64,000 nucleotides of DNA from Ilumatobacteraceae bacterium. Its GTDB lineage: Bacteria; Actinomycetota; Acidimicrobiia; Acidimicrobiales; Ilumatobacteraceae. The stretch's first letter is position 1. Each line of letters starts with the position of its first letter. The position numbers and the translations under genes are program-made. Of this stretch, positions 5,101-11,936 are shown in pieces. The notes below the pieces were generated by a model, which saw only the letters and a list, made by a program, of their open reading frames with translations, did not search any database and had not been told where the DNA came from. The stretch spans positions 1 to 64,000 of the forward strand of contig JAHEKY010000003.1 in NCBI GenBank assembly GCA_024644465.1, read 5' to 3'.

Positions 5101-7467
5101 TCAGCCGAACCGCGTGAAGTAGCGGCGGATCCTGCGCAGCGGCGAGATCGACTCACCGACGGCGCGTTCGATCTGGCGGCACCAGTGCTCGCATTCGTCG
5201 ATCCGCAACCGGCCACGCTGGTTCGGTTGCCCAATGGTGGACGGTGCGACGTCGTCGCCGTCGCCGGGCGCATACGTCACCGTCGTCAACGCTTCGGCGA
5301 GCGACGAGATCGGGCGGGCGATGATCGGGAACTTCGCCGCCGCCGCCGATGCGTGCTCCGCAGGGGTCAACGACGAGCGGGCCCGGACGCCGACTTCCGC
5401 GAGCGCGTCGATCGAACGTCGCCAGAGCATCGCGACGGCGCCGGACTCGTCGGTTGCTTCCTTGCGGCGCCGCCACCTGCGAACGAGCGCCGGTCCGACC
5501 AGCACGGCGAGTGCGGCGATCGCGAGGACGACGACCCGCCAGGGGAACGACCTGCCCGTCGCCGGCGGTGGGGCGTCGTCGTCGGTGGTGACCGTCTGAT
5601 CGACGCCGGCCGGAATGTTCGGTCCGTCGGTGTCGTTCGCGTCGACCGCGATCGTCGACGTCGGCGCCGTGTCGGAGTTCTCCTCCGGCTGGGCCGGCTC
5701 GGGGCGGGGGGCGTCGGGATCGACCCCTGAGACGTCCTGTTCGGGGGCGACGTTCGTGTAGTTCTCCGAACCCGGTGCGCCGCGTCCCGGCGTCGGCTCG
5801 AACGGCACCCACCCGAGGCCGCTGAACCACACCTCCGGCCAGGCGTGGGCGTTCTTGCCGAGCACCGAGTACCCGGTGCCGTTGAAGTTGCCGGGGGTGA
5901 ACCCGACCGCGACGCGCGCCGGGATGCCGAGCGTGCGCATCATCGCGGCGTACGTGCCGGAGAACTGCTCGCAATACCCGACGCGATCGCGCAGGAATCC
6001 CTCGATCGCGTTCGAGCTGTGCCCGGCCTGGACCTCGAGGCTGTAGTCGAACTCGCTGCGGAACCAGTTCTGCAGTGTCAGCGCGATCTCGTAGCTCGTC
6101 GTCGCACCGTCGGTGACCTCGGCAGCGAGGCGGCCGACCGAGGGCGGGAAGTTCTCCGGCAGTTCGAGGTAGATCGGGTCGCCGACTCCGGACGACCCGG
6201 CGGCCTGGAGTTGGGCGACGTCGAAGCGCGGTGCCGCCGAGACGACCTCGAACGTGTCGCCGGGTTCGAGCTCACCTTCGATCTTCAGCAACGTCGAGGA
6301 GTCCTCGTTCCACCGCAGCTCGTCCTGTGGCGTCACGGTGATCAGGTCGGCGGCCGTTGGCACGAACTTGTCGCCGAGATTGCTGATGCGGATCGTCTGA
6401 CGCAGCGGGTCCGAGCCGGCCCGCGCGTCGGACAGCGTGCCACCGGCGCCGGTCAGTGACCGTTCCGGAAGACCCCACCGCGTCCCGTCGAACCGCGGCA
6501 GCGCCGACAACCGCCAGTACGACTCGAAGTCCGCCTCGACGACGAACAGTTCCGTGTTGGAGCGGTTGGTCAGCCGCGAGCGGATGTCGACGAGCGGGCT
6601 GACGACGTTGGTGACGCTGCCGCCGTTGCCGCCGCGGGTCTCGTAGATCGGAGCCGAGTCCGCGCCCGGGAGTCGCGGGCCGACGTAGCCGGCGGTGATC
6701 GCGACGAGCGCGGCGGTTCCGATCGCCGCCGGGAGGATCAACCTGCTCGGTGAGCGTTCGCGCCCGATCGCGGTCGGACGACGTGGGGAGTGGAACGCGC
6801 GGAGGGCGACGGTCGCGATGACACCGGACGCGATGAGCAGCAACGTCAGCGAGATCCGGCTGCGTTCGTAGCCGAGCGCGGCGATGAACACGAACAACAC
6901 CCCACCGGGCACGAGCGCCTCCGCCCGGGCGAAAGCACGGAACGCGAACGTGTCGGACAGCACGATCGTCAGCCCGATCCCGATCGCCGCGAGCACGTCC
7001 CACCCGCCGGCGTAGATCACCGGCGCAACCGCGCCGCGGAACTGCGATCGGACGAGATCGATCTCGGCCTGGAACAAGTCGAGCGTCTCGCCGGTCGGCA
7101 GCAGCAGCGAGTAGGAGTCGCGGTAGTAGACGAACCCGACGAGCCACACGAGCGCCGCGGTGAGGACGGGGACTGCGAGCCATCCGGGTACCCGCAGACG
7201 GCGAAGTACGAAGCCGGCGCCGTGGCCGACCACCGCGAGCACGAGGAAGTCGTCGAGGAACTGCCATCCCGCGAACACCCGCGTGTAGCCGATCGCGACG
7301 GCGATCGTGAACGTCGTCAGCGCCGCAACGGCGATCAGCTCCCTCGACAGCAGCGGGTCGACGATCGGACGTGCGGTGGGCGGAGCCGCACGGGGCGGCG
7401 GCGGCGCCGCCTGCGGACGCCAGTCGCTCGCGGGGCCCGGCCGCGTGGGCGCGTCGGTCATCGTCAT
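5101..7467 (-). CDS. transglutaminase-like membrane protein (TgpA/DUF3488 type)
   Basis: A protein of 788 residues and last gene of a MoxR-DUF58-transglutaminase operon. The N-terminal third has several hydrophobic helices (the DUF3488/TgpA region). The extracytoplasmic part contains a transglutaminase core: Cys in VGYCEQFSGTYAAMMRTLG, His in HAWPEVWFSGLGW, then the acidic position before FEPTPG. A Pro/Asp/Glu-rich linker leads to another membrane helix, and the cytoplasmic tail resembles DUF4129. The family is thought to modify or process cell-surface proteins; its substrates are unknown. The ATG overlaps the DUF58 stop by four bases (ATGA), with a second ATG two codons downstream. Confidence 0.88.
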   Translation of the reverse strand: MTMTDAPTRPGPASDWRPQAAPPPPRAAPPTARPIVDPLLSRELIAVAALTTFTIAVAIGYTRVFAGWQFLDDFLVLAVVGHGAGFVLRRLRVPGWLAVPVLTAALVWLVGFVYYRDSYSLLLPTGETLDLFQAEIDLVRSQFRGAVAPVIYAGGWDVLAAIGIGLTIVLSDTFAFRAFARAEALVPGGVLFVFIAALGYERSRISLTLLLIASGVIATVALRAFHSPRRPTAIGRERSPSRLILPAAIGTAALVAITAGYVGPRLPGADSAPIYETRGGNGGSVTNVVSPLVDIRSRLTNRSNTELFVVEADFESYWRLSALPRFDGTRWGLPERSLTGAGGTLSDARAGSDPLRQTIRISNLGDKFVPTAADLITVTPQDELRWNEDSSTLLKIEGELEPGDTFEVVSAAPRFDVAQLQAAGSSGVGDPIYLELPENFPPSVGRLAAEVTDGATTSYEIALTLQNWFRSEFDYSLEVQAGHSSNAIEGFLRDRVGYCEQFSGTYAAMMRTLGIPARVAVGFTPGNFNGTGYSVLGKNAHAWPEVWFSGLGWVPFEPTPGRGAPGSENYTNVAPEQDVSGVDPDAPRPEPAQPEENSDTAPTSTIAVDANDTDGPNIPAGVDQTVTTDDDAPPPATGRSFPWRVVVLAIAALAVLVGPALVRRWRRRKEATDESGAVAMLWRRSIDALAEVGVRARSSLTPAEHASAAAAKFPIIARPISSLAEALTTVTYAPGDGDDVAPSTIGQPNQRGRLRIDECEHWCRQIERAVGESISPLRRIRRYFTRFG

Positions 7468-8654
7468 CGCGCACCTCCGCTCTCGGCCGGCTGGGGCCGC
7501 GGCCGACCGGTCTCACGGCTGCTGCGCGCCAGCCCGTTGAGTGTGCGCCAGGACTCGACGAACTCGTCCTCGGTGCGTGCCGAGACACCGACGCCGGCGC
7601 GCGCCCGCTCGTCGGACGTCACGCTGAGGGCGGTGAGTGTCGGGTCGACGATCGCCTGCATCGTCCGCCAGGCCCCGCTCTGGTGCGTGCCGGTGACGAG
7701 GATCATCAGGCCGAGCCCTTCTCCGGGATCTCGATCGAGCACACCCAGCGGCTCGGTGCTCGGTTCGATCCGGGCGAGCACCTTCAGCGTGTTCGCGCCC
7801 GCCTCCGGGCCGCGCAGGTCGATCCCGCCGGAGGTGACGAAGCGGGTCGTCAACCCCGCCTGTTCGGAGCTGTGCACCAGGCTCGCGGCCGCGGTGACCG
7901 CTCGTTCGAAACTCGCCGACTCGAGATAGGACGTCGGGTCGGCATCGAAGATCACCGTGCACCGACGGACGCCTTCGACCGTGTGCTCCTTGACCAGCAG
8001 ATCCAACGATCGGGCCGACGACTTCCAGTCGATCGACCGTGGCTCGTCACCGTCGACGTACAGCCGCAGGCCGTGGAACTCGCCGGGACCGAGCCGGCGC
8101 GCCTGGACGAGCAGGTGGCGGCCGAGTACGCCCTGGCCGAGCAGCGGCATCGGCAGGAGGAACGTCTTCGGGGCGACCGTGACCGTGTCCAGGTCGGCGA
8201 CGACGTGCCGGGAACAGGCGATGCCGAGCGGGTCAAACGTCTCGACGAGCAGCGGGCCGAGCTGGACGATGCCGCGTGCGGTCGTCGGCAACTGATAGCC
8301 GGCTGACGACCGCGTGCCGGGCGCGAGGGGTGCGACCGACAGGCGCGCGAGATGATCCGGGGCGTTCGCCCGGCGTACCCGTTCCGCCAGCTCGAACGAA
8401 GTCGAACGGACCGTGCTGCGGTGCGCGAGCCGCAGGTCGACACGTCCGGTGTCGCCCGCCACGAGCACGGTCGGATGGACCCACCGGATCGCGCTGATCT
8501 GCGGACGCCTGACCCGCACGAAGACGACTGCCCACACCGCGGCCGCGAGGAACGCCGTGCCGATGACGAAGAGCTCGATGACGCCGAAGACGCGTCCGAC
8601 CGCGATCGCCAGGAACCCGGCGACGACGCTCGTCACGCCCTGCCGCGTCAGCAT
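7464..8654 (-). CDS. DUF58-domain membrane protein
   Basis: A protein of about 396 residues with two N-terminal hydrophobic helices (about 8-50), then the DUF58 signature in GDEPRSIDWKSSARS and a von Willebrand A-like C-terminal region. DUF58 proteins almost always accompany MoxR ATPases and transglutaminase-like proteins, as here. They are thought to act as adaptor or substrate-binding partners of the AAA+ chaperone. The ATG at 8654 follows the MoxR stop by a single base. A further upstream in-frame ATG would lie inside the MoxR gene and is not favoured. Confidence 0.88.
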   Translation of the reverse strand: MLTRQGVTSVVAGFLAIAVGRVFGVIELFVIGTAFLAAAVWAVVFVRVRRPQISAIRWVHPTVLVAGDTGRVDLRLAHRSTVRSTSFELAERVRRANAPDHLARLSVAPLAPGTRSSAGYQLPTTARGIVQLGPLLVETFDPLGIACSRHVVADLDTVTVAPKTFLLPMPLLGQGVLGRHLLVQARRLGPGEFHGLRLYVDGDEPRSIDWKSSARSLDLLVKEHTVEGVRRCTVIFDADPTSYLESASFERAVTAAASLVHSSEQAGLTTRFVTSGGIDLRGPEAGANTLKVLARIEPSTEPLGVLDRDPGEGLGLMILVTGTHQSGAWRTMQAIVDPTLTALSVTSDERARAGVGVSARTEDEFVESWRTLNGLARSSRETGRPRPQPAESGGAR

Positions 8655-8655
8655 T

Positions 8656-9720
8656 TCATCGGGCGACCGGCACGGGTACGGCTTCGAACAACTCGCGTAC
8701 CGCATCCTCCGGTGACAAATGGGCGCCCCGGTCGGTGCGCACCATGATGCGGTGCGAGAGCGTCGCCAGCCCGACCGCTTTCACGTCGTCCGGGGTGGCG
8801 TAGTTGCGGCCCCGTGCGGCCGCGTGGGCGCGCGTCGACGCGGCCAGCTGCAACGTCGCGCGAGGCGACAGACCGAGCTCGATGCCCGGGTGCCGCCGGC
8901 TCGCCTCGGAGATGTCGACCAGGTAGGACTTCAATGCGCCGGCGACGTAGACGGTGCGCACCGCAGCGATCATCCCGTTGATCTCCTCCGCGGAGACCAC
9001 CGGGCTGAGCGTGCGCAGCACGTTCGCCGACCCGAGGTCGTCGAGCATCTCGATCTCCGCGGTGCGGCCGGGGTAGCCGATCGAGATCCGCAGCAGGAAA
9101 CGGTCGAGTTGGCTCTCCGGCAGGCGGTACGTGCCCTCCTGGTCGACCGGGTTCTGGGTGGCGATCACCATGAACGGCGGCGCGAGCTCGCGGCTGACCG
9201 CATCGACGGTGACCTGACGCTCTTCCATCGCCTCGAGCAGTGCCGACTGGGTCTTCGGGGAGGCCCGGTTGATCTCGTCGGCGAGCACGATGTTCGCGAA
9301 CAGCGGGCCCGGCTCGAAGCGGAACTTCTCGGTAGAGCGCTGATAGATGCTGACCCCGACGAGGTCGGTCGGCAGTAGGTCGGGTGTGAACTGGACTCGC
9401 TTCCACGTGCAGTCGACCGACGCCGACAGCGCCTTGGCGAGGCTCGTCTTGCCGACGCCGGGAACGTCCTCGACGAGGAGGTGGCCCTCGGCGAGCATGC
9501 ACATGATCGCGAGCTCGATCGATTCGATCTTGCCGTGGATGACGAGCGCGATGTTCGCCGCGATCGCATCGAACAGTGCTGCGAAGCCGCGTGGTGCGAT
9601 GTCGATCGCACCCTCGGTGGCGCCATCACCCGTGTCGGCACCCGTGCCGGTCTCGAAGCGTTCGGAGACGCGTCGTGCCGCCGGCCCGGTCGTCGGTGTT
9701 CCGTCCTCGTCAAGATCCAT
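8656..9720 (-). CDS. MoxR-family AAA+ ATPase
   Basis: Cytoplasmic AAA+ ATPase of 354 residues, first gene of the MoxR-DUF58-transglutaminase operon. Walker A is visible in EDVPGVGKTSLAKA (about 85-97) and Walker B in IVLADEINRASP, followed by sensor regions and a C-terminal lid. The first 40 residues are poorly conserved and acidic. The ATG start is supported by GAGG a few bases upstream. MoxR proteins are regarded as chaperones that mature partner proteins carrying VWA-like domains. Confidence 0.92.
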   Translation of the reverse strand: MDLDEDGTPTTGPAARRVSERFETGTGADTGDGATEGAIDIAPRGFAALFDAIAANIALVIHGKIESIELAIMCMLAEGHLLVEDVPGVGKTSLAKALSASVDCTWKRVQFTPDLLPTDLVGVSIYQRSTEKFRFEPGPLFANIVLADEINRASPKTQSALLEAMEERQVTVDAVSRELAPPFMVIATQNPVDQEGTYRLPESQLDRFLLRISIGYPGRTAEIEMLDDLGSANVLRTLSPVVSAEEINGMIAAVRTVYVAGALKSYLVDISEASRRHPGIELGLSPRATLQLAASTRAHAAARGRNYATPDDVKAVGLATLSHRIMVRTDRGAHLSPEDAVRELFEAVPVPVAR

Positions 9721-9770
9721 CGTCACCTCGCGAAGGGTAGATGCAAACGCCCGGCTGCGACAGTCGGCGG

Positions 9771-9776
9771 TACCTT
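9771..9776 (+). promoter_or_regulatory. -10 element of a near-leaderless promoter for the ROK-like gene
   Basis: TACCTT lies eight bases before the ATG of the ROK-like gene, in the 64-base gap shared with the divergent MoxR operon. Confidence 0.4.
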
Positions 9777-9784
9777 CGTTCCCG

Positions 9785-10663
9785 ATGAGTTTCGCACCAG
9801 ACGACCCCGTCGAGTCGGTCCCGCACGTGCTCGCCGTCGCGGTGGAACCGTCCCGGCTCGCGGCCGGGCTCGTCGATGCTCGCGGCGACGTGCTGCTGCG
9901 CGACCGCGTGACGACGCCGGCGCGCGATGTCTGGCGATCCCTCGAACGCCTGATCCGCCGCGTGATCGCCGCTGCGCCCGACGGGCTGGGTGCGCCGAGC
10001 GGCGTCGGCGTCAGCTGTGTCGGGCCGGTCGATGTCCACGCGGGCACCGTGTCGCCGTCGATGGTGCCGACATGGACCAACTTCACCTTGCGTGAGCACA
10101 TGGAGCGGCTGACCGGACACGACGTCGAGCTCGACTCGGCCGGGGCGGCGGCGACCGAAGCGGAGCGCTGGCTCGGCGAGGCACGTGGTGTCGCCAGCTT
10201 CCTCAGTGTCCAGCTCGACGGGACGATCGAATCGGCCTGTGTGATCGACGGGGTGCGCCTGTCGGGGTCACACGGCAATGCCGGCTCGATCGCACACGTC
10301 GTCGTCGAGCCGAACGGCAAGCCCTGCCGGTGTGGCGCGCACGGTTGCGTGGAGGCCTACGTGTCGTCGACCGCGATCGAGGCCGAGATCAATCGGCCGC
10401 TCGGCAGGGCCACGGCGCCGACCGTCGAGCGGACCGGCATCATGCTCGGACGAGCGATCGCCTCGATGGCCGCGATGCTCGACGTGCGGACCGTGTTCGT
10501 GTCCGGCAACGTGATCGACGTGCTCGGCGACCCGATGCTGGCGGCGATGCACCGCGAGCTCGCCCTGCGGTCGCGACTCGCGTCGCTGACCGGGCTGCAG
10601 GTGATCGAGCCGCACGAACGGATCGCGCCGCTCGTCGCGGCGGCGGCACTGGCGCTCAACTGA
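9785..10663 (+). CDS. degenerate ROK-family protein (probable non-kinase)
   Basis: A protein of 292 residues with the fold signatures of the ROK sugar-kinase/repressor family but with catalytic positions changed. The zinc site CRCGAHGC (181-188) and its upstream His (H171 in NAGSIAH) are present. The N-terminal phosphate-binding motif DxGGT is replaced by AVAVEPS (about 17-23). The segment that normally holds the catalytic Asp (NDAN) reads DSAG (117-120). The usual AGEIGH sugar-binding motif has lost its Glu (AGSIAH). There is no N-terminal winged helix, so it is not a typical ROK repressor either. Its role is unknown; it may bind a sugar or act as a regulator. Confidence 0.8.
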   Translation: MSFAPDDPVESVPHVLAVAVEPSRLAAGLVDARGDVLLRDRVTTPARDVWRSLERLIRRVIAAAPDGLGAPSGVGVSCVGPVDVHAGTVSPSMVPTWTNFTLREHMERLTGHDVELDSAGAAATEAERWLGEARGVASFLSVQLDGTIESACVIDGVRLSGSHGNAGSIAHVVVEPNGKPCRCGAHGCVEAYVSSTAIEAEINRPLGRATAPTVERTGIMLGRAIASMAAMLDVRTVFVSGNVIDVLGDPMLAAMHRELALRSRLASLTGLQVIEPHERIAPLVAAAALALN

Positions 10664-10709: not shown

Positions 10710-11936
10710 ATGGACCCGACCTACACCCCCGAAGCCGAGGCATACCGCGAAAAGGTGCAGGCCTTCCTCGCCGAGAAGCTCCCGGCCGACTGGCAGGGCA
10801 CCGGCGTGCTGGAAGGCGACGAACTCGCCGACTTCGTGACCGAGTGGCGCAAGACGCTCTACGAGGCGAACTACCTCGCCCCCGGGTGGCCCCAGGACGT
10901 CGGGGGCGCGGGTCTGTCTGCGACCGAACAGGTGATCCTCGCCGAGGAGTTCACGAAGGCCGGCGTCCCGGGCGGTGGCCCCAACGACGTGTTCGGCATC
11001 CAGATGCTCGGCAACACGATGCTGATGTGGGGGACCGACGATCAGAAGCGGCACTTCCTGCCCCGGATCCTCTCGGGCGAGGACACGTGGTGTCAGGGTT
11101 ATTCCGAGCCGAACGCAGGCTCCGACCTCGGCAATGTCGGCCTGAAGGCGGAACTCGACGGCGATGAATGGATCCTCAACGGGCAGAAGATCTGGACGTC
11201 GGCCGGGCATCTCGCCGACCACATCTTCACGCTCGCCCGCACGGATCCGGACGCTCCGAAGCACAAGGGCATCTCGTTCCTGCTCGTACCGATGGACCAG
11301 CCCGGCATCGAGGTTCGCCCGATCAAGATGATCTCGGGCGACAGCGAGTTCAACGAGGTCTTCTACACCGACGCGCGGGTCCCGAGGGAAAACGTCGTCG
11401 GCGGCGTCAACAACGGGTGGGCGGTGGCGATGTCGCTGCTCGGCTTCGAGCGCGGCGAGGCGGCCGCGACCGGGCCGATCCGCTTCAAGGGTGAGATCGA
11501 CCGGCTGATCGCGATGGCCGCGGAGCGCGGCCTCACCGACGACCCCGAGATCCGTCAGCGGCTCGCGTGGTGCTACTCGAAGGTCGAGATCATGAAGTAT
11601 CTCGGCCAGCGCACGCTGACGAAGTTCCTCGCCGGCCATCACCCCGGCCCCGACGGTGCCATCTCGAAGCTGTACTGGAGCGAGTACCACAAGGTCTCGA
11701 CCGAGCTGGCGATGGACATTCTCGGCGCCGACGCTCTCTTCTGGGAGGGGCGCCGGCCCTCGTCGGCGTTCAGCGCCGACGATGCAGGGGCCGCCAATTC
11801 GTCGGCCTCGTGGATCGGGACGTTCCTCAACGCACGCGCCGGGACGATCTATGCCGGGTCGTCGCAGATCCAGCGCAACATCATCGGCGAGATGATCCTC
11901 GGTCTGCCGAAGGAACCGAAGCCACCGGCTCCGTGA
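10710..11936 (+). CDS. acyl-CoA dehydrogenase family protein
   Basis: FAD-dependent enzyme of 408 residues that oxidises an acyl-CoA thioester to the 2-enoyl-CoA. The FAD/substrate signature is WCQGYSEPNAGSDL (127-140), and the C-terminal signature is GTIYAGSSQIQRN. The Glu that serves as catalytic base in medium-chain enzymes (IYEGT) is replaced by Ala. E247 in LGFERG occupies the position used by isovaleryl-CoA dehydrogenase-type enzymes, so activity is still likely. Many actinobacterial FadE proteins of lipid and sterol breakdown have this pattern. The substrate cannot be told. The next gene is coupled through a GTGA overlap. Confidence 0.9.
   Translation: MDPTYTPEAEAYREKVQAFLAEKLPADWQGTGVLEGDELADFVTEWRKTLYEANYLAPGWPQDVGGAGLSATEQVILAEEFTKAGVPGGGPNDVFGIQMLGNTMLMWGTDDQKRHFLPRILSGEDTWCQGYSEPNAGSDLGNVGLKAELDGDEWILNGQKIWTSAGHLADHIFTLARTDPDAPKHKGISFLLVPMDQPGIEVRPIKMISGDSEFNEVFYTDARVPRENVVGGVNNGWAVAMSLLGFERGEAAATGPIRFKGEIDRLIAMAAERGLTDDPEIRQRLAWCYSKVEIMKYLGQRTLTKFLAGHHPGPDGAISKLYWSEYHKVSTELAMDILGADALFWEGRRPSSAFSADDAGAANSSASWIGTFLNARAGTIYAGSSQIQRNIIGEMILGLPKEPKPPAP

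What the first reader, a model, noticed from the sequence alone, without database searches (positions are those of the whole stretch)
9836..10348. ROK-family protein that kept its zinc site but lost the kinase residues
The CRCGAHGC zinc motif and its His are intact. The DxGGT phosphate-binding motif reads AVAVEPS, the catalytic NDAN segment reads DSAG, and the sugar-binding Glu of AGEIGH is Ser. There is no DNA-binding domain. This looks like a pseudo-kinase that may bind a ligand or partner, transcribed away from the MoxR operon.
Basis: partly seen in the sequence, partly recalled or inferred. Interest (0 to 1): 0.5.

Follow-up and report, generated by a model that had tools for sequence, protein, structure and literature searches.

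The report
Dead sugar-kinase cousin, still conserved
This bacterial gene encodes a sugar-kinase relative that has lost the residues needed to act as a kinase but keeps its zinc site and is still protected by natural selection, so it probably works as a non-catalytic partner protein, perhaps of its living sister enzyme.

Summary
The gene is window 9785-10663 (+), 292 aa, a ROK protein without a DNA-binding domain.

It is not a private oddity. In its family (Ilumatobacteraceae by inference) 35 copies form one clade: catalytic Asp in 0 of 35, Gly149 replaced by Asp/Glu in 35, all four zinc ligands in 35. dN/dS is 0.10-0.16. The losses are not class-wide: 18 of 18 copies held from other families keep the four key kinase residues. 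Of the 35 genomes, 31 were shown to carry a second copy, B, intact in 23.

MoxR proximity is conserved but dispensable: four genomes keep the pseudo-kinase with no MoxR or DUF58 match. In another genus an independently evolved dead ROK directly precedes an intact one, stop and start codons touching.

Best reading, inferred: a zinc-stabilised pseudo-kinase subunit partnering a living ROK kinase. No activity, binding or structure was shown; the AlphaFold model failed.

The parts
9785..10663 (+). ROK-family pseudo-kinase gene, 292 aa (copy A)
   Evidence: Pfam ROK 113.7 bits; 35 orthologues in one clade
9839..9856 (+). position of DxGGTK (phosphate loop 1), reads A19 V E P S R24
   Evidence: Lys24 is Arg in 31 of 34 pseudo-A copies
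10133..10147 (+). position of DNDAK (catalytic loop), reads D117 S A119 G A; catalytic Asp is Ala119
   Evidence: Asp in 0 of 35 pseudo-A copies
10217..10237 (+). position of (S)TGVGGG (phosphate loop 2), reads D145 G T I E149 S A
   Evidence: Gly149 is Asp (25) or Glu (10) in 35 of 35
10283..10297 (+). position of GHIGH; S168 in place of the sugar-binding His/Glu, zinc ligand H171 kept
   Evidence: H171 in 35 of 35
10325..10348 (+). zinc motif CRCGAHGC (C181, C183, C188 ligands)
   Evidence: each Cys in 35 of 35
9721..9784 (.). 64-bp divergent intergenic stretch between the MoxR start and the ROK start
8656..9720 (-). MoxR-type AAA ATPase (neighbour)
   Evidence: AAA_3 209.6 bits; divergent beside 20 of 22 pseudo-A copies with the flank held
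7464..8705 (-). DUF58 protein (neighbour)
   Evidence: 36.8 bits
5101..7467 (-). TgpA-like transglutaminase-core membrane protein (neighbour)
10710..11936 (+). acyl-CoA dehydrogenase, next gene on the same strand (neighbour)
   Evidence: within 800 bp downstream in 23 of 23 pseudo-A copies with the flank held

Best explanation
The gene encodes a catalytically dead ROK protein that arose from a ROK sugar kinase and was kept for a non-catalytic job. Shown by sequence: loss of both phosphate loops, the catalytic Asp and most of the sugar site; an unchanged zinc site; purifying selection; one origin of this clade; company of a second ROK copy (B) in most genomes. Inferred: the protein folds as a zinc-stabilised ROK protomer and works by pairing with a live ROK protomer (copy B, or another ROK), holding or tuning it allosterically. 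ROK kinases are described as homodimers (PMC5458393, passage), so a duplicated copy can form mixed dimers by default. The invariant acidic residue at 149, in place of a phosphate-loop Gly, would repel ATP; with Arg24 it may close the old nucleotide site (speculative).
For: (1) 35 sequences in one clade, support 1.0 with all columns and 0.993 without active-site columns, nested among other copies of the same locus, most of them motif-intact. (2) Asp119 in 0 of 35; acidic 149 in 35 of 35; zinc ligands in 35 of 35. (3) Mean column entropy at 15 active-site positions is 1.70 in pseudo-A against 0.15 in intact A; the zinc motif is 0.00. (4) NG86 dN/dS 0.098-0.164 in seven pseudo-A pairs. (5) B was identified by sequence in 31 of 35 pseudo-A genomes; two more (G066, G094) have a second, unclassified match; the last two (G003, G082) are 81% and 73% complete. 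(6) A separate genus evolved a dead ROK from the B side of the tree, zinc motif kept, placed directly before an intact ROK: the stop overlaps the start by 1 nt in G087, and lies 2 nt and 3 nt from it in G073 and G031. (7) The pseudo-kinase persists in genomes with no MoxR or DUF58 match, against a partner in that operon.
Against: No complex, binding or activity was shown. Copy B has itself lost at least one of the four key residues in 11 of 52 two-copy genomes, 10 of them with A altered too, so a clearly live partner of this subfamily is not always present. B loss is not clearly tied to A loss (10 of 37 against 1 of 15). Rate covariation of A with B (partial r 0.44) is no stronger than A with the unrelated neighbour LplA (0.66): inconclusive. 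A and B lie at separate loci in this genome. Pseudo-A dN/dS (0.098-0.164) is higher than that of six B pairs (0.057-0.082), so constraint is weaker than on B. In genus g23 only two upstream copies are held far enough to be called dead; the G031 one is partial.
Confidence: 0.45

Rival explanations
1. Ligand sensor or adaptor: the dead ROK binds a sugar-like or other small ligand in its remodelled cleft and passes the signal to a partner outside the ROK family, without needing copy B.
For: In genus g11 nine A copies have the catalytic Asp changed to Asn while GxGVGGG and GHxGH are largely kept, a state expected of binding without catalysis. In 10 of 52 two-copy genomes both A and B have altered motifs yet are kept. 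H171 and, in 10 of 35, E190 of the sugar site remain.
Against: In the pseudo-A clade the sugar-site residues at 119, 168 and 190 are not conserved as a set, so no common ligand pocket is visible. No ligand is known.
Confidence: 0.27
2. Partner of the divergent MoxR-DUF58-TgpA system, acting in envelope protein assembly.
For: MoxR is divergent within 1.5 kb of 20 of 22 pseudo-A copies with the flank held, and of none of 51 B copies.
Against: G021, G066 and G094 (90-98% complete) and G013 (77%) carry pseudo-A but have no MoxR match at E <= 1e-30 and no DUF58 match at E <= 1e-8 (diverged homologues could be missed). Intact ROK copies in other families also sit beside MoxR, so the neighbourhood is not tied to the loss.
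Confidence: 0.1
3. An enzyme with changed chemistry: the remodelled cleft (Arg24, Asp/Glu149, Ser/Thr118) catalyses a new reaction.
For: Position 149 is acidic in 35 of 35, 118 is Ser/Thr in 33 of 35, 24 is Arg in 31 of 34.
Against: Many other cleft positions that are conserved in intact copies vary in pseudo-A; no new conserved catalytic set was recognised.
Confidence: 0.1
4. A decaying relic with no function.
For: The active-site columns are strongly relaxed.
Against: dN/dS 0.098-0.164 in seven pairs; invariant zinc ligands; ten positions nearly invariant in pseudo-A that vary in intact A; kept in 35 genomes.
Confidence: 0.03
5. Still a kinase by an unusual mechanism, another residue replacing the catalytic Asp.
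For: D117 lies next to the lost Asp.
Against: D117 is Asp in only 20 of 35; both phosphate loops are gone as well.
Confidence: 0.05

Closest known systems
ROK N-acetylmannosamine kinases (NanK; e.g. 2aa4, 6jdc) and ROK glucokinase 3vov
   Same: Sequence family, zinc motif, length; best NCBIfam hit is PRK05082 NanK, 74.3 bits; intact relatives share GHxGH with E. coli NanK
   Different: Far below the NCBIfam cut-off (283); both phosphate loops, the catalytic Asp and most sugar-site residues lost
ROK repressors (Mlc, NagC; 1z6r, 3bp8)
   Same: ROK domain used for regulation rather than catalysis; zinc motif (family knowledge)
   Different: No N-terminal helix-turn-helix here; ROK is the only Pfam family found
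The paralogue B in the same genome (L037) and the intact counterparts at the shared locus in other families (e.g. L031)
   Same: Same subfamily, 39% (B) and 41% (L031) identity, same zinc motif
   Different: They keep DIGGTK, the catalytic Asp, STGxGGG and GHxGH
Fusobacterium nucleatum NanK (PMC5458393)
   Same: ROK protein missing a signature motif
   Different: The mirror case: it lacks the zinc site and keeps the other motifs (passages read)

Membership tests
ROK family (PF00480) | Pfam profile match above the curated cut-off | tested here: met
   113.7 bits against 22.9
ROK family (PF00480) | Zinc motif CxCGxxGCx(E/D) plus His of GxxGH | tested here: met
   C181, C183, C188, H171, E190
ROK sugar kinase | DxGxT nucleotide-binding motif | tested here: not met
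   A19-V-E-P-S
ROK sugar kinase | Strictly conserved catalytic Asp | tested here: not met
   Ala119; Asp in 0 of 35 orthologues
ROK sugar kinase | ExGH (or HxGH) sugar motif | tested here: not met
   S168-I-A-H171; only the zinc-binding His is kept
ROK sugar kinase | Phosphorylates a sugar | not testable with these tools
   needs purified protein
ROK transcriptional repressor | N-terminal helix-turn-helix domain | tested here: not met
   Only about 14 residues precede the first ROK strand; no HTH in Pfam
N-acetylmannosamine kinase (NCBIfam NF003461, NF047821) | Score above the curated cut-off | tested here: not met
   74.3 of 283; 67.8 of 450; three intact relatives also fail NF003461, 151.5-161.5 of 283
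Pseudo-enzyme (conserved non-catalytic paralogue) | Catalytic residues lost and gene under purifying selection | tested here: met
   absence of activity itself not measured
Hetero-oligomeric ROK with a pseudo-kinase subunit | Physical complex with a live ROK | not testable with these tools
   only co-occurrence and one tandem genus

The most novel reading that the evidence does not exclude
Ilumatobacteraceae run mixed ROK enzymes: dead, zinc-stabilised ROK subunits that evolved at least twice (the copy here, and a translationally coupled tandem copy in another genus) and that regulate a live ROK kinase, a pseudo-kinase/kinase system in a sugar-kinase family where my searches found none described.
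Probability: 0.4. Interest if true: 0.65.

Novelty: new variant of a known kind. Interest (0 to 1): 0.5.

Why it matters
ROK proteins are described as sugar kinases or as transcriptional repressors (PMC4856308 and PMC12696579, passages read). A conserved branch without HTH and without kinase residues, with live and dead copies side by side across one bacterial family, would let one watch a metabolic enzyme turn into a non-catalytic partner and test what the retained zinc module does alone.

Tried and rejected
A viral-contig scan, partly to find more permitted relatives, found none.

Rate covariation between A, B and neighbours (19 genomes) did not single out A-B; treated as inconclusive. YN00 dN/dS returned no value for 12 of 15 pairs, so NG86 is given. 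Two further pairs of near-identical genomes (intact A 0.021, B 0.009) are not used as controls.

Partner in the MoxR operon: weakened by genomes without a match (TgpA was not searched there). Relic: rejected on dN/dS and conserved positions. The strict claim 'loss only where two copies exist' was softened: G026 (93% complete, one match) has one of four key residues altered, and G003 and G082 (81% and 73% complete) show only pseudo-A. Rooting of A against B is unresolved (support 0.374 at that node), so I do not claim which copy is the original, only that A sits at the locus shared with other families. MoxR was missing from the first synteny table because my script cut it in the wrong frame; one search mends that. 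L107 (94 aa fragment) was left out of the tree and the copy counts; L099 and L108 (distant ROKs) were left out of the group counts and L108 was the root. Six of the 24 genomes searched in other families (G036, G039, G049, G050, G055, G056) were not fetched.

Literature (open-access PMC only): 'ROK family' + pseudokinase 0 papers; four-term zinc/catalytic search 128, 20 listed; six-term Mlc search 7; 'ROK family' + 'catalytically inactive' 1, a CRISPRi paper, listing only; Ilumatobacter + ROK 0; ROK + pseudoenzyme + sugar kinase 1, listing only; a mixed search 1,158, 12 listed, none on ROK by title; Acidimicrobi + 'ROK family' 0; NagC/Mlc search 5. Of the listed papers I read passages of four: PMC2742894, PMC5458393, PMC12696579, PMC4856308. 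Conejo et al. 2010 was seen only as a citation.

Full report
What it is. The open frame at 9785-10663 (+) gives a 292-residue protein. Pfam finds only the ROK domain, 113.7 bits against a cut-off of 22.9; 29 distinct solved-structure sequences match at E <= 0.01, led by a ROK glucokinase (3vov), human GNE's kinase domain and a NanK. The genome is an unnamed 3.37-Mb assembly, 82.9% complete. A record titled Ilumatobacter sp. holds an 88%-identical copy on a contig of the same length as the one in G001; the family name Ilumatobacteraceae for 'f1' is inferred from that.

The motif losses. The ROK signature is a DxGxT motif, a strictly conserved catalytic Asp, an ExGH motif and CxCGxxGCx(E/D) (PMC5458393, passages); the sugar residues in human GNE are N516, D517, E566, H569 and E588 (PMC2742894, passages). 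By alignment these correspond here to S118, A119, S168, H171 and E190, so three of five are lost. DxGGTK reads AVEPSR, the second phosphate loop reads DGTIESA, and the GSVALGFG stretch (nucleotide side by family knowledge) reads GNVIDVLG.

How widespread. I aligned 162 ROK proteins of this subfamily and its outgroups. Thirty-five from family f1, including the window's, form one clade with support 1.0, and 0.993 when active-site columns are removed. In it the catalytic Asp is present in 0 of 35, Gly149 is Asp (25) or Glu (10), and each zinc ligand is present in 35 of 35. Of the other groups, B copies keep Asp119 in 52 of 55, and further copies in 57 of 69. At 15 active-site positions mean entropy rises from 0.15 (30 intact A copies) to 1.70 (35 pseudo-A); at six zinc-motif positions it is 0.11 and 0.00; at 254 others 1.27 and 1.55. 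Ten positions outside the motifs (L25, R39, D40, R47, R59, A63, G87, Y192, R204, R262) are invariant or nearly so in pseudo-A but variable in intact A, which suggests a new constraint. A permutation among 85 conserved columns gave p 0.0022 for excess relaxation at 13 active-site columns; I chose that set from the known motifs but after seeing the alignment, and related sequences inflate such tests.

Selection. NG86 dN/dS: window against G001 0.107, window against G005 0.105; seven pseudo-A pairs 0.098-0.164; six B-copy pairs 0.057-0.082. Constraint is therefore strong but weaker than on B. dS exceeds 1 in several pairs, so the values are approximate.

Locus and history. MoxR lies divergent within 1.5 kb upstream of 20 of 22 pseudo-A copies with enough flank, and an acyl-CoA dehydrogenase follows within 800 bp in 23 of 23; for B copies both counts are 0 (of 51 and of 50). 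MoxR is also beside 25 of 36 'other' copies, a group that mixes other families with non-pseudo f1 copies; the dehydrogenase follows 19 of 37 of them. The 18 copies held from other families (of 24 genomes searched) are intact at residues 19, 119, 147 and 149. So the window gene sits at an old shared locus and B lies elsewhere. Whether A or B is the phylogenetic original is unresolved.

Copy number and loss. Of 52 f1 genomes with both copies held: A altered and B intact 27, both intact 14, both altered 10, A intact and B altered 1. Of 39 f1 genomes with a single match that I classified (tallied by hand; a subset of the single-match genomes; G106, G023, G149, G110, G173 and the g23 genomes left out as fragmentary or not single), 36 are intact; G026 has one altered residue, and G003 and G082, both incomplete, show only pseudo-A. 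Parsimony needs at least four changes for Asp119 and eight each for Gly147 and Gly149, against none for His171 and one for Cys181. The reverse also occurs: L056 and L115 keep the kinase motifs and lack the zinc cysteines.

The MoxR question. G021, G066, G094 and G013 carry pseudo-A but gave no MoxR match (E <= 1e-30) or DUF58 match (E <= 1e-8), while G001, G006, G022, G024 and G027 did. The pseudo-kinase therefore does not appear to need that system.

A second, independent dead ROK. In genus g23 (G031, G073, G087) two ROK genes lie in tandem. The downstream copy keeps the kinase residues in G087 and G031; the G073 one is cut by its contig end and keeps DIGATK and GDGDTK. The upstream copy is dead by motif in G073 (ELGGVQ, DTVGR, IDDSVAGG, GRVGH) and G087 (ELDGSR, DDVGR, LGQRVSGG, GRVGH) with the zinc motif kept; in G031 only its C-terminal part is held, so its state there is not shown. 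The upstream stop overlaps the downstream start by one base in G087 and lies 2 or 3 bases from it in G073 and G031. The tree places the two upstream copies with the B side, not with pseudo-A: 0.92 for a clade with B and B-side single copies (all columns), 0.888 for a clade with four B copies when active-site columns are left out. Gly at 120 and Arg at 121 appear in both upstream copies and in 29 and 16 of 35 pseudo-A copies. Such tight coupling usually means that the two products act together (established knowledge; inference here).

Mechanism and confidence. I commit to a zinc-stabilised pseudo-kinase subunit pairing with a live ROK (0.45). Shown: sequence losses, selection, co-occurrence, and the tandem arrangement elsewhere. 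Inferred: fold, inactivity, pairing, regulation. A sensor acting alone is the main rival (0.27). The AlphaFold attempt failed, so no structural claim is made.

Novelty. Non-kinase ROK proteins are known as repressors; I found no paper on a ROK pseudo-kinase without HTH in the open-access library. I rate it a new variant of a known kind.

Noticed in passing
L056 (G051) and L115 (G058): ROK copies beside MoxR in other families that keep all kinase motifs but lack the zinc cysteines, the mirror image of the window gene.
   Followed up: partly
L236 5745-7552 (G087), L237 (G073), L238 (G031): Tandem ROK pair with touching stop and start codons in genus g23; the upstream copy is dead by motif in the two genomes where it is held far enough.
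   Followed up: yes
L025, L123, L125, L127, L131, L133, L134, L136, L150 (genus g11): A copies with the catalytic Asp changed to Asn (NNAK or INAK) while the second phosphate loop and GHxGH are largely kept, as if binding were kept without catalysis.
   Followed up: partly
L044, L045, L047, L092, L093, L169, L188-L191, L195: Copy B itself has an altered key residue in 11 of 52 two-copy genomes, 10 of them with A altered too.
   Followed up: partly
G001:C94:18805, G025:C62:4828, G008:C10:60719, G006:C1:2129752: A more distant ROK match lies roughly 15-20 kb from the A copy on the same contig in these relatives (coordinates); the window's contig begins too close to the gene to show it.
   Followed up: no
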